64,000 nt of DNA. It comes from Proteus mirabilis ATCC 29906 (GTDB lineage: Bacteria > Pseudomonadota > Gammaproteobacteria > Enterobacterales > Enterobacteriaceae). Shown piece by piece: positions 39,422 through 43,092 of this stretch. The DNA lies in the NCBI RefSeq assembly GCF_000160755.1, contig NZ_GG668576.1:1260308-1324307 (forward strand). Reading direction: 5' to 3'. The first letter of the stretch is position 1. Each line of letters begins with the position of its first letter. The notes beneath the pieces were generated by a model. It was given only the letters and a program-made list of their open reading frames with translations, was not told where the DNA came from and ran no database searches. A program made the translations under genes and the position numbers.

Positions 39422-39940
39422 ATGCTCTCTAATATGAAAACAGTAAGAGTCCCTATCGCCTTAGTGCAAAGTGTTATGCGTACACTGCGTGAAAAACTGC
39501 AACAGGCCAATAAATATCTTAATACAGATTACCCAGAACCCACTCTACAATATAACCAGAGAGGAACTATTGCAGGCAGTGCCTATTATGCAAATTGGGA
39601 AATCCGTCTTAATCCTACATTATTGATTGAAAATAAACAGAATTTTATTGAAGAAGTTATTCCTCATGAATTAGCACATCTGCTAGTTAGTCGCCATTTT
39701 GGTCGTGTGGCACCTCATGGCAAGGAGTGGAAATGGATGATGGAAACTGTGTTACAGGTTAATGCGAAACGGACCCACCATTTTGATATCAGCAATGTAA
39801 CAGCAAAAACGTTTAGCTATGCTTGTCGCTGCCAAGAAATACACCAGTTAACTCTTCGCCGACACAATAAAGTACAACGAGGAGAAACCCAGTATCGTTG
39901 TCGTCATTGTCAGGCGATTTTACAATTAATTAAAGAGTAA
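39422..39940 (+). CDS. sprT: SprT family zinc metalloprotein
   Basis: 172 residues from ATG 39422 (AAGG 6 bases upstream). Zinc-metalloprotease signature HELAH in [11 protein letters not shown] followed by [17 protein letters not shown], and a C-terminal zinc ribbon (CRCQ and CRHCQ). E. coli SprT is close in sequence; its physiological role is uncertain. In E. coli sprT lies next to galP and metK, so here it marks the far side of the bcs insertion. endA, which follows in E. coli, is not present. Confidence 0.94.
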
Positions 39941-40053
39941 AAAAAAGTAAGCTTGGTCTTTAAGACTAAACGTCAGCCGAGGTTCTGAGTGACACTGAGC
40001 AGGGATGTTAGTATAAACACTGGCAATAAAACTGCGGGAAGTCATTTCAAATT

Positions 40054-40298
40054 TTGATGAATTCAAATGATCAATTAAGTAAAAGTATATCAGGCAAAAA
40101 GATAGAGAAATTTATTGAATTTTATGCAAACTATATTCAAATACTTCACAAAATTACAGTGAATTTATCAAGCGTTGCATCATTGCAAGTAAGGAAGTTT
40201 ATGATGAAAATAGAAAGGCAAATGCAATATCGCATGTAATTCAAGTAAAGCCTGAAGAGCCAAAGAAAAATATTCCTCCTAAAAAAGATCAAGAGTAA
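40054..40298 (+). pseudogene. Decayed small gene with a frameshift
   Basis: A frame opens at ATG 40054 (MMNSNDQLSKSISGKKIEKF, ending in a frame that stops at 40239). From about 40150 another frame reads coherently, YSEFIKRCIIASKEVYDENR then a Pro/Lys/Glu-rich tail ending KNIPPKKDQE, with stop at 40296-40298 and no start codon of its own. Both halves have protein-like composition, which suggests one gene broken by a frameshift. I do not recognise the family. The flanks 39941-40053 and 40299-40428 show no gene. Confidence 0.45.
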
Positions 40299-40428
40299 TT
40301 TCTCACTGAGTCATATAGCCAAGATCAAATCATCTAGCCCATCCTTGAGATGGGTGATGGTATATATCCTTTAGCTTTAAATGATGTATACTTTGTATGC
40401 GTATCTATTTCAGCGAAGGTAATAAACT

Positions 40429-41025
40429 ATGATTTCTGAGGCTATTATGATGGCAATGCTATCAAATCCAATGGATAAAAAAGATGTGGATTCAGGCTTG
40501 GCTAATTTAGCCATGTCGATAGCTACCATTGTTGATAAAAAGGCAAAAGGTGATGTATCACCAGATGAAATTATGGATTTAATTGTTGGTGGTAAGACCG
40601 TGCTAACGACCCTTGTTACATCAATCGATGAAATAGTGGCTTTACTTGATGACCCAACAAAAGATGACATAAAAAAATATGCAGGTAATAACCCTGATGA
40701 GGTTATGCGTGAATTGGAACGAGTGATTAACCATGGTAATAATGTAATTATGATGATTGAGGCAATGTATAGCATTGCTAAAACTACCAAGGCTTTTCAT
40801 CCATTTGAAAGCATAGCTGATGGTTACTTCAAAGAAGTTATTCTTAAAATGGCTGCACTAAGAAACCATACACAAGCACTTTATAGACAATTTAATCAGC
40901 ATATTAACCCGTTACCCGCAATGGAGGTTGAAGATGGATTCGGTGAAGAGGATATAGCATTGTTTAATTCCTCAATAGCTGAATTTAATCAAGATCTGCT
41001 TGCAGGTAACTTGCAATGCCGATAG
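40429..41025 (+). CDS. Unknown helical protein, putative partner/antitoxin of the YafO-like toxin
   Basis: 198 residues, not recognised. Predicted almost entirely helical (SGLANLAMSIATIVDKKAKG; VINHGNNVIMMIEAMYSIAK; YFKEVILKMAALRNHTQALY) with an acidic C-terminus (VEDGFGEEDIALFNSSIAEF). No signal peptide, no TM segment, no Phd/YefM or HTH signature. GAAGG lies 9 bases before the start. Its end overlaps the start of the YafO-like gene by 10 bp, so the two are translationally coupled. An antitoxin role is inferred only from context. Confidence 0.75.
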   Translation: MISEAIMMAMLSNPMDKKDVDSGLANLAMSIATIVDKKAKGDVSPDEIMDLIVGGKTVLTTLVTSIDEIVALLDDPTKDDIKKYAGNNPDEVMRELERVINHGNNVIMMIEAMYSIAKTTKAFHPFESIADGYFKEVILKMAALRNHTQALYRQFNQHINPLPAMEVEDGFGEEDIALFNSSIAEFNQDLLAGNLQCR

Positions 41026-41426
41026 TCACAATCACGCCCAGATATAAAGATAACGATGTTTATCGGAAGTATGCGGCTAAGCTATCAGCTGCTCTTAATG
41101 GCTCATCCCTCTCTGGGTATATAGGTAAATTTGCTGATTTTAGGAATAGCGCCATAGCGCGTCAGTCATTTATTGAAAAGGTTCATATAAGAACGCCAAA
41201 TGAAAAACCTTGGGATGGCGAAACTCGACAGGCTGTTAGAGTGAGCGATAACTTTTTAGTGTTTTGTAAGCACTGTATGTACGATGATTATTACCAAATT
41301 CTGGCAATCATAACTCCTGATGCACATGCTCGTTCAGATGCGTTGCTTCCAATATTGGCAGATATGGCAGAAACTTATTTTCATTCTTTATCGCTTAAAG
41401 AGTTAGCTGGATTAGATCAGTTCTAG
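41016..41426 (+). CDS. YafO-family toxin (type II toxin-antitoxin, putative)
   Basis: 136 residues. From about residue 50 it lines up by eye with E. coli YafO: VHI..NE.P......RQ....SD..LV.C followed by LAIITPDAHARSD and MAE near the end, against VAHIH..NENNPF..LRQF..TNDE.HLVYC, LIAILKPEPH and MAE. YafO is a ribosome-dependent mRNA interferase. The N-terminal 50 residues diverge. The upstream partner is not YafN-like, which makes the assignment notable. The stop is followed by non-coding sequence. Confidence 0.62.
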   Translation: MPIVTITPRYKDNDVYRKYAAKLSAALNGSSLSGYIGKFADFRNSAIARQSFIEKVHIRTPNEKPWDGETRQAVRVSDNFLVFCKHCMYDDYYQILAIITPDAHARSDALLPILADMAETYFHSLSLKELAGLDQF

Positions 41427-41526
41427 CCACACATAGCTCAAGGACGACTTGCTTGAGATCACATAGCGGGTGGTTTTATATTTAAGACGCTGACGCGACT
41501 TAAACAGGCTAAAGCCCATAACAAAA

Positions 41527-41563
41527 AATAAAGCCGATAACTTGTTAGTTTATCGGCTTTATT
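41527..41563 (-). terminator. mgtE terminator (possibly bidirectional)
   Basis: 13-bp perfect stem AATAAAGCCGATA (41527-41539) / 41551-41563 with an 11-base loop. In the minus direction it ends in a T-rich run and is 28 bases past the mgtE stop; in the plus direction it could also serve the YafO-like module. Confidence 0.88.
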
Positions 41564-41590
41564 CGGTATAAATAAGGGAGGATTGATATA

Positions 41591-42664
41591 TTAAGCAAAC
41601 ACACTCATAGTATGAGATGCTATTTCAAAGTAGATAATAAGCCCAGTACCATCAATAAATGTTGCAATAAAAGGTGCAGACACCACCGCTGGATCAACAC
41701 CAATACGCTTTAATACCATTGGAATAATAGAAGAGACAATAGCACTCCAAACCGTAATTGAAATTAGCGTTAATCCCACCACTATCATCACTTCCATGCC
41801 AACCCCTAAGGTCCAAGCACGAATAAATCCTGCTATTCCCATGGTTAAAGCCACCATTATCGAGGTCGTGATCTCTTTTCTTAATACTGACCATACATTA
41901 CGCAAGCTCACCTCACCTAATGCCATGGCACGTACTAATGTTGAGGTAATTTGTGTACCGCTATTGCCACCAGTACCAATTAATAATGGAATAAAGAAAG
42001 CTAAAGAGATAGCAGCTTCAAGTCTGTCTTCAAAAGCATGTAACACCGTACTGGTATAAGCTTCAGCAATAAACAGCATTAATAGCCAGACAACACGTTT
42101 ACGCCACAAAGTAACCGGACTTGTCTCTAAATAAGGTTGTTCTAATGGCGACGTTGCCCCCTGCATTTGTGCATCTAGCGTATTTTCATCTTCAATTAAA
42201 TCAGCAATATCTTGAGGCCGTAATACACCAACTAACTTACCAAAATGCATCACAGGTACACTGTCTAAACCACTTTGGCTAATTAACTGATAAACATCAT
42301 GTCGGCTTTGCTCCGGTGAAACTGAGAAAAATGTTTGGCGCATAATATCCGAAACAAAAAGCCCATTATCAGCAAGTAGTAATGATTTAACCGGCAAAAT
42401 ACCGTTAAGATAATTATCTTTATCTACGACATACAGATAAGTTGGAATTAATTCATCTTTTAAATCATTAACCAGCTGTGCTTTTACATGTTCAACCGAA
42501 TCTGCGACAGAAACAGAAATATAATTCTGGCTCATATAAGCACTAACGGTAGCATCATCTTTTAAACGATGATGTTGCTCTTGTATTGAATGATTATTGG
42601 GTGTGTTTAAGGATGCGCCTGCCATTAATGCAGCATCCATTTTATGTTGAGGAGTAAATTTCAT
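41591..42664 (-). CDS. mgtE: Magnesium transporter MgtE, short form
   Basis: 357 residues against roughly 450 for full MgtE. A CBS-domain pair occupies about residues 40-165 (MSQNYISVSVADSVEHV; SDIMRQTFFSVSPEQS; VGVLRPQDIADLIEDE), then a five-helix membrane domain with the signature PLLIGTGGNSGTQITSTLVRA and DPAVVSAPFIATFIDGTGL. The MgtE N-terminal superhelical domain is missing; no start further upstream would supply it, since an M-box lies there. Imports Mg2+ (or Co2+), gated by Mg2+ at the CBS domains. Confidence 0.93.
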   Translation of the reverse strand: MKFTPQHKMDAALMAGASLNTPNNHSIQEQHHRLKDDATVSAYMSQNYISVSVADSVEHVKAQLVNDLKDELIPTYLYVVDKDNYLNGILPVKSLLLADNGLFVSDIMRQTFFSVSPEQSRHDVYQLISQSGLDSVPVMHFGKLVGVLRPQDIADLIEDENTLDAQMQGATSPLEQPYLETSPVTLWRKRVVWLLMLFIAEAYTSTVLHAFEDRLEAAISLAFFIPLLIGTGGNSGTQITSTLVRAMALGEVSLRNVWSVLRKEITTSIMVALTMGIAGFIRAWTLGVGMEVMIVVGLTLISITVWSAIVSSIIPMVLKRIGVDPAVVSAPFIATFIDGTGLIIYFEIASHTMSVFA

Positions 42665-42749
42665 TTTTTTGGTTCCCTATGACTGTTTGTGTTTAGCAAA
42701 TCAGTTCTCAATAGGGGCGAAACCAGATGCGAGAATGCAAAAGCTATCT

Positions 42750-42910
42750 ACACGTCTCGGTTTTAGCACTATACAACGTATCCGATGAATACTGGAAGTT
42801 ACATGGAGATATACCTTCGGTCGATATATCTTGTCCTAATCTTGGGCGTCTCTCGACGTCGTCAGATCAGTAACCTGTGTTTGTATAGGAGCCTCGCCTA
42901 ACGAGATACT
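42750..42910 (-). promoter_or_regulatory. M-box (ykoK) Mg2+ riboswitch
   Basis: In the 5' leader of mgtE the minus strand reads CGTTAGGCGAGGCTCCTATA near its 5' end, then ACTGATCTGACGACGTCGAG and AGACGCC, then ACCGAAGGTATAT, ATGTAACTTCCAGTATTC and GTGCTAAAACCGAGACG. These are the conserved blocks of the M-box aptamer in the right order (GTTAGGTGAGGCTCCTATA, ACGTC-AGAGACGCC, CGAAGG, GGTATTC, TGCTAAA-CC-ACG). High Mg2+ would lower mgtE expression. The remaining leader, about 85 bases to the start codon, should hold the expression platform. Confidence 0.9.
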
Positions 42911-43092
42911 GCACTTTTCTTGCGAATGCGGCGCGCATTATAACCACTCACATTATAATGAAAAGTCTCATCGTAGTTTTGTTTAAGTTCTATTGATAAA
43001 TCTTAAATCGCTTATTTTTTACATCATTAATTAAATACTCACCTCAAATAGAGATGAATAAAATAGTTTTAAATAAATTGGTTATTAATTGA

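What the first reader, a model, noticed from the sequence alone, without database searches (positions are those of the whole stretch)
40429..41426. YafO-like toxin coupled to an unrecognised 198-residue helical protein: a possible new toxin-antitoxin pairing
The 136-residue second gene aligns by eye with the conserved C-terminal part of YafO, but the upstream gene, overlapping it by 10 bp, is twice as long as YafN and shows no Phd/YefM or HTH signature. Toxins often swap antitoxins; an all-helical antitoxin with an acidic tail would be a new type for this toxin. A decayed gene just upstream and loss of endA next to sprT suggest an accessory island.
Basis: partly seen in the sequence, partly recalled or inferred. 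Interest (0 to 1): 0.8.

Follow-up and report, generated by a model that had tools for sequence, protein, structure and literature searches.

The report
Phage-borne YafO toxin with helical partner
Two overlapping bacterial genes look like a toxin of the known YafO family and a previously unnamed, larger all-helical partner that travels with it in phages, prophages and phage-like plasmids, probably as its antidote; that has still to be tested at the bench.

Summary
The 136-aa gene (T) belongs to Pfam YafO_toxin (E 3e-19); AlphaFold predicts a RelE/HigB-type fold (pLDDT 95.8). The 198-aa gene (P) matches no named family. P is not a chance neighbour: a profile of phage-borne P proteins, built without the window, finds just two places in the whole own genome, this P (E 3.7e-14) and the partner of a second YafO-like gene (E 4.3e-4). 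In E. coli, 90 of 90 matching records carry both genes. Of 120 loci with T (repeats included, search biased to P-partnered T), 107 have a coupled upstream ORF, 42 clusters of 160-216 aa. YafN-YafO pairs form a separate branch (94/89). The window pair lies in a ~1.58-kb insert between sprT and mgtE that 19 of 19 other genomes of the genus lack; 95% identical toxins occur in viral contigs. Most likely it is a type II-like toxin-antitoxin cassette of temperate phages with an unrecognised, fast-evolving antitoxin family. Toxicity, neutralisation and any phage-defence role are inferred. 'Loss of endA' is not supported as a mark of the island.

The parts
40429..41025 (+). P: 198-aa all-helical protein, putative antitoxin (first gene)
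   Evidence: ORF; found by profile A5 built without it, E 3.7e-14 in own genome; AlphaFold helices 15-39, 45-73, 89-118, 121-159, loop ~160-172, C-terminal helix 173-191, mean pLDDT 74, pTM 0.60; dN/dS 0.15-0.19
41016..41426 (+). T: 136-aa YafO-family protein, predicted BECR/RelE-type fold (second gene)
   Evidence: PF13957 E 3e-19; AlphaFold pLDDT 95.8, pTM 0.90; first 30 VIA-align rows all RelE/HigB/YafQ/YoeB-type toxins or a RelE domain
41016..41025 (+). 10-bp overlap of P end and T start (translational coupling likely)
   Evidence: same overlap in L007-L010 and L029
40332..40428 (+). upstream block that moves with the pair: hairpin at its left edge; TATACT (TATAAT in relatives) -10-like element at 40387-40392
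   Evidence: similarity to L007-L010 and L029 begins at 40332-40335 and the DNA upstream of it is not alike; hairpin z -2.4 in window, -2.9 in L008, -1.1 in L029; the -10 element was seen by eye, the consensus scan did not list it
39947..41523 (.). about 1.58-kb insert between sprT and the mgtE terminator; no integrase or transposase ORF noticed in it
   Evidence: alignments to 19 other same-genus genomes stop near 39927-39946 and resume near 41519-41591
40054..40239 (+).
41527..41563 (.). inverted repeat (14-nt arms), likely terminator of mgtE, right border of the insert
   Evidence: not listed by the terminator scan

Best explanation
The two genes are a type II-like toxin-antitoxin cassette. 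T is a YafO-family, RelE-fold mRNA endonuclease. P, made first and translationally coupled to T, is its cognate protein antitoxin: a helical bundle joined by a flexible loop to a C-terminal helix that I expect to cover T's active-site cleft. The cassette (about 97 bp of upstream DNA plus both genes) moves as cargo ('moron') of temperate phages and phage-like plasmids and reached this chromosome between sprT and mgtE. In a lysogen it most likely limits superinfection or stabilises the element. Shown: genes, family of T, homology and linkage of P, insertion. Predicted: both folds. Inferred: toxicity, neutralisation, which part of P binds T, autoregulation, biological role.
For: T: PF13957 E 3e-19; predicted RelE/HigB-type fold; G37, H57, R75, P101, H104 conserved in P-partnered (41-42 of 43) and YafN-partnered (3-5 of 5) rows. 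Linkage: 90 of 90 E. coli records; 8 of 8 named phage/plasmid regions opened from the hits have a 167-210-aa ORF directly upstream of T (GArcari-2022b is unannotated and was read by ORF); 20 of 20 loci fetched with two phage P proteins have T next to P (mostly contigs already seen); 107 of 120 T loci with a coupled ORF of 150 aa or more. P homology. P-first order, spacing -17 to +9 bp in 106 of 107 (the T start was taken as the start codon nearest the P end, which favours tight spacing). P and T pairwise distances correlate, r 0.96, 0 of 2000 permutations as high: no sign of partner exchange in the 40 pairs. Toxin broken with intact P: L031 in-frame stop, L042 T cut short.
Against: No experiment. 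L088 has an intact T with a frame-shifted P in a draft viral contig 99.7% identical in P to an intact one: slip or a real exception. In the less biased sample, Pfam-profile matches in bacterial genomes, long partners are not dominant: order-wide 8 of 17 matches (2 of them from the own genome), against 5 YafN-type and 4 other; class-wide, 4 further matches, 3 YafN-type and 1 with a 59-aa upstream ORF. P's model is only moderate and matches nothing known; no P-T complex was modelled. Some P relatives carry signal-peptide-like N-termini, odd for a cytoplasmic antitoxin. Several groups of long partners (Pasteurellaceae, L019/L101, L024, L015, L020, L169) are not securely linked to the core family.
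Confidence: 0.77

Rival explanations
1. A phage exclusion module in which P is not an antitoxin but a sensor or membrane-linked activator and T the RNase effector, silent until infection; T alone would not be toxic.
For: Cargo positions near phage regulators or within late genes; signal-like N-termini in 21 of 46 P by a crude test against 9 of 38 control ORFs, 0 of 46 T. Prophage mTmII, with a yafO-like gene, confers phage resistance, gene responsible unknown (PMC9836087, one section and passages read).
Against: Gene order, tight coupling and the YafO family, whose studied member is toxic alone and rescued by its partner (PMC2814082, passages). Whether mTmII carries a P gene was not checked.
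Confidence: 0.13
2. P is a separately useful phage gene that merely shares an operon with a YafO-like toxin whose antitoxin lies elsewhere.
For: P has no antitoxin-like fold or DNA-binding motif that I could recognise; helical bundles fit many roles.
Against: Linkage holds in different phages and plasmids with different flanks, and the shared unit ends at T's stop codon in all but one of the related copies.
Confidence: 0.06
3. Inactive remnant in this genome.
For: The rest of the insert is unrecognised DNA; window-type P is absent from the 98 other genomes.
Against: Both frames intact, dN/dS well below 1, the invariant T residues present.
Confidence: 0.04

Closest known systems
YafN-YafO (dinB operon TA of E. 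coli)
   Same: Toxin family, conserved residues, antitoxin-first bicistronic order
   Different: There the partner is a ~97-aa Phd/YefM-type YafN; here a 198-aa helical protein without detectable relation (hhalign E 0.38); separate group in the toxin tree; often carried by phages
RelE/ParE (BECR) superfamily TA modules such as HigBA, DinJ-YafQ, YefM-YoeB
   Different: Sequence family and antitoxin type
PHROG 1651 (T) and PHROGs 18235, 35514, 20546 (P groups), all 'unknown function'
   Same: Phage members of the two gene families
   Different: Kept as separate families there, with weak cross-matches at best (E 0.007); the window P matches none
SLING-predicted unknown partners of YafO_toxin in E. 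coli (PMC10790755)
   Same: Adjacent unknown partners of YafO-family genes: 6 toxin and 13 partner clusters, proportion known 0.08 (passages)
   Different: Predicted by adjacency, not described in the passages seen; whether they include P is unknown. The paper gives a 150-aa limit in its methods and 200 aa elsewhere for antitoxins, which would leave out many or a few P proteins

Membership tests
YafO toxin family (PF13957) | Profile score above Pfam gathering cut-off | tested here: met
   69.4 bits against 25
YafO toxin family (PF13957) | BECR/RelE-type fold | tested here: met
YafO toxin family (PF13957) | Translation-dependent mRNA cleavage and growth arrest | not testable with these tools
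   bench assay needed
YafO equivalog (NCBIfam NF007377) | Score above 153 bits | tested here: not met
   33.7 bits: a family member, not shown to be an orthologue of E. coli YafO
YafN-YafO system | Phd/YefM-type antitoxin YafN upstream | tested here: not met
   No Phd/YefM match; hhalign to YafN group E 0.38
Type II toxin-antitoxin module | Two adjacent co-directional genes, tightly coupled, co-inherited | tested here: met
Type II toxin-antitoxin module | Antitoxin binds and neutralises the toxin | not testable with these tools
   no complex modelling or bench work available
Type II toxin-antitoxin module | Operon autoregulation by antitoxin | not tested
   P shows no recognised DNA-binding family; the conserved upstream block was only described
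P family of this report | Window P found by a profile of the other phage-borne P proteins | tested here: met
   E 3.7e-14, positions 2-174 of 193; 7e-19 against 3e-4 for the best of 200 shuffles
P family of this report | C-terminal (S/E)HxxLG-type motif (common, not universal) | tested here: not met
   31 of 42 clusters have it, the window copy does not
Known antiphage systems (PADLOC 2.0.0) | Match to a PADLOC model | tested here: not met
   none for either protein up to E 5

The most novel reading that the evidence does not exclude
P is an envelope-directed antitoxin: its N-terminal hydrophobic segment, signal-peptide-like in many relatives and a short hydrophobic helix in the window copy, ties the toxin's control to membrane insertion or export, so that phage entry or envelope damage withholds P and frees T. 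That would be a new way to trigger a type II toxin.
Probability: 0.08. Interest if true: 0.85.

Novelty: new variant of a known kind. Interest (0 to 1): 0.52.

Why it matters
YafO-family genes in prophages and plasmids have been listed without an antitoxin (PMC10449497, PMC12066637, PMC8151138; passages). In the one of these that I opened, Pseudomonas phage vB_PaeS-D14L, a 167-aa gene annotated 'hypothetical protein' sits 8 bp upstream, and it matches the profile of one P group (E 2e-7; best of 200 shuffles 3e-3). If P is the antitoxin, such lone toxins become complete modules, a large fast-evolving antitoxin family without Phd or HTH features joins a well-studied toxin superfamily, and length limits in TA-mining pipelines deserve a second look. 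It also offers a simple, testable candidate for lysogen-borne phage resistance.

Tried and rejected

The 13 of 120 T loci without a coupled ORF of 150 aa or more: five YafN-type (L012, L013, L014, L016, L017; the T of L012 and L013 has a stop), L046 (decayed), and seven with none by the rule: L108 (contig edge), L031 (T broken), L088 (P broken), L023 (start unclear; a 220-aa ORF overlaps), L022, L026, L027 (short or unclear partners).

Full report
What is there. P (40429-41025, 198 aa) and T (41016-41426, 136 aa) overlap by 10 bp on the + strand. T is a member of Pfam YafO_toxin (E 3e-19) and PHROG 1651; it scores below the NCBIfam equivalog cut-off. P has no match above a curated cut-off in Pfam or NCBIfam and none up to E 5 in PHROGs or PADLOC.

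Recurrence of the pair. T relatives came from own-genome, order-wide, genome-contig and viral-contig searches and named phage and plasmid regions; five loci (L007-L011) came from P searches. Of 120 loci with T, 107 have a coupled upstream ORF of 150 aa or more, in 42 clusters whose representatives are 160-216 aa long; in 106 of the 107 the gap is between -17 and +9 bp, the exception being L063 with 92 bp. Three cautions: several loci are repeats of one place (four for the window, for example); the T start was taken as the start codon nearest the P end; and searches used an alignment (A1) of P-partnered T only, so they favour this kind. The less biased sample is the Pfam profile: order-wide 17 matches in 16 of 394 genomes, of which 8 have a long partner (two of them in the own genome), 5 a YafN-type one and 4 neither by my rule; class-wide 4 further matches, 3 YafN-type and 1 with a 59-aa ORF upstream. 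As a rough control, 16 of 84 ORFs of 110-165 aa elsewhere in the loci have a coupled upstream ORF of 150 aa or more. Coming from the other side, 20 of 20 loci fetched with two phage P proteins carry T directly downstream, mostly on contigs already seen. In 5,426 E. coli genomes three versions of the pair match 37, 9 and 44 genomes, and in all 90 records the best place covers 100% of both genes; frames were not checked one by one.

One family of partners. P diverges faster than T (mean pairwise distance 0.80 against 0.62). Pairwise hhalign of 14 P groups links the core groups (best 7e-14) and links the window group to the Enterobacter plasmid group (8e-5), the Pantoea group (1e-4) and the phrog_35514 group (6e-4); the window group against YafN gives 0.38. 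The clean test is: a profile of 20 P proteins without any window-type row, run against the whole own genome at E up to 10, returned exactly two places, the window P (3.7e-14) and the partner of the second YafO-like gene (4.3e-4). With 200 shuffled sequences beside them the same profile gives the window P 7e-19, the best shuffle 3e-4. The partners in Pantoea plasmid pPAT9B03 (L170) and Pseudomonas phage D14L (L168) match the group of the second own pair (4e-36 and 2e-7, best shuffle 3e-3), while that of L169 and the groups from Pasteurellaceae, L019/L101, L024, L015 and L020 are not securely linked to the core.

Toxin tree and residues. In a tree of 53 T rows the five YafN-partnered rows group together (94/89) on one side of a 99/97 split, and 42 rows, all but three of them P-partnered by my rule, lie on the other; three rows with long partners (L015, L020, L024) fall on the YafN side with long, uncertain branches. 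G37, H57, R75, P101 and H104 are shared by both kinds.

Setting and mobility. In 18 of 19 other genomes of the genus the sprT block and the mgtE block are 6-104 bp apart; one has a 764-bp insert without the pair. Window-type P is absent from the 98 other relatives searched. The window's extra DNA runs from about 39947 to 41523. Viral-contig copies (L007-L010) and a Providencia stuartii copy (L029) match from 40332-40335 to the T stop at 41426 at 90-91%, one copy running 39 bp further, with nothing alike upstream, so the unit that moves is about 97 bp plus the two genes. L009 lies among phage tail genes and L029 near phage regulator genes by Pfam. Elsewhere the pair sits beside Arc/Mnt-type regulators in phage CUS-3 and in UTI89, after the tape measure gene of phage Tbat2_3, within baseplate genes on a Shigella phage-like plasmid, next to regulator genes on an Enterobacter plasmid and in E. 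coli CX21, in P. aeruginosa phage D14L, on a 111-kb Enterobacter plasmid, on a Pantoea plasmid and, by ORF, in Klebsiella phage GArcari-2022b. The genus of the window is inferred to be Proteus from the second pair, whose neighbours (a DJ-1-like and a thiI-like gene, named from recall) are shared with two Proteus genomes; no call names it.

How it works. The economical reading is a type II-like toxin-antitoxin module: a YafO-family mRNA endonuclease held by a co-translated protein. E. coli YafO arrests growth and is rescued by YafN (PMC2814082, passages). That T is toxic, that P neutralises it and that the C-terminal helix is the blocking part are inferences. A lysogen-defence role is a further inference; prophage mTmII, which carries a yafO-like gene, confers phage resistance by an unknown gene (PMC9836087, one section and passages), and its neighbour was not checked. 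That paper pairs yafO with ydaS as a possible toxin-antitoxin system.

What is in print. A 2025 review of the RelE/ParE superfamily lists YafO with antitoxin-toxin order (PMC11980606, passages). A SLING survey of 950 E. coli isolates lists 13 mostly unknown partner clusters for YafO_toxin (PMC10790755, passages); it gives antitoxin length limits of 150 aa in one place and 200 aa in another, so P may or may not be among them. YafO toxins are listed without antitoxin from P. aeruginosa prophages and a Klebsiella plasmid. I found no description of P in the searches listed under Tried and rejected.

Verdict. A real, widespread, unnamed partner family of YafO-type toxins; very probably antitoxins; a new variant of a known kind.

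Noticed in passing
window 42741-42912 (-): M-box magnesium riboswitch (RF00380, 140.6 bits) upstream of the MgtE-like gene 41591-42664 (-) (gene name from recall).
   Followed up: no
L002 905-1872 (own genome, contig C52): A second P-T pair in the same genome, between a DJ-1-like gene and a thiI-like gene; same place in Proteus alimentorum and P. columbae (L042, L044), where the L042 toxin is cut short.
   Followed up: partly
L022, L027, L122: Diverged YafO-like genes with a third kind of upstream neighbour, ORFs of 53-59 aa.
   Followed up: no
L144 about 2030-2794: Another genome of the genus has a 764-bp insert without the pair at the same sprT-mgtE site; its right end resembles an inverted repeat at the right edge of the window insert.
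   Followed up: partly
L015, L020, L024, L045, L101, L107, L109, L169 and others: Long partners with signal-peptide-like N-termini; 21 of 46 by a crude test, 9 of 38 control ORFs, 0 of 46 toxins.
   Followed up: partly
plasmid records, for example L169: 99 plasmid records, 98 typed non-mobilizable, mostly Enterobacter (76), carry a YafO-like gene; the 111-kb plasmid opened has a 174-aa gene overlapping it upstream.
   Followed up: partly
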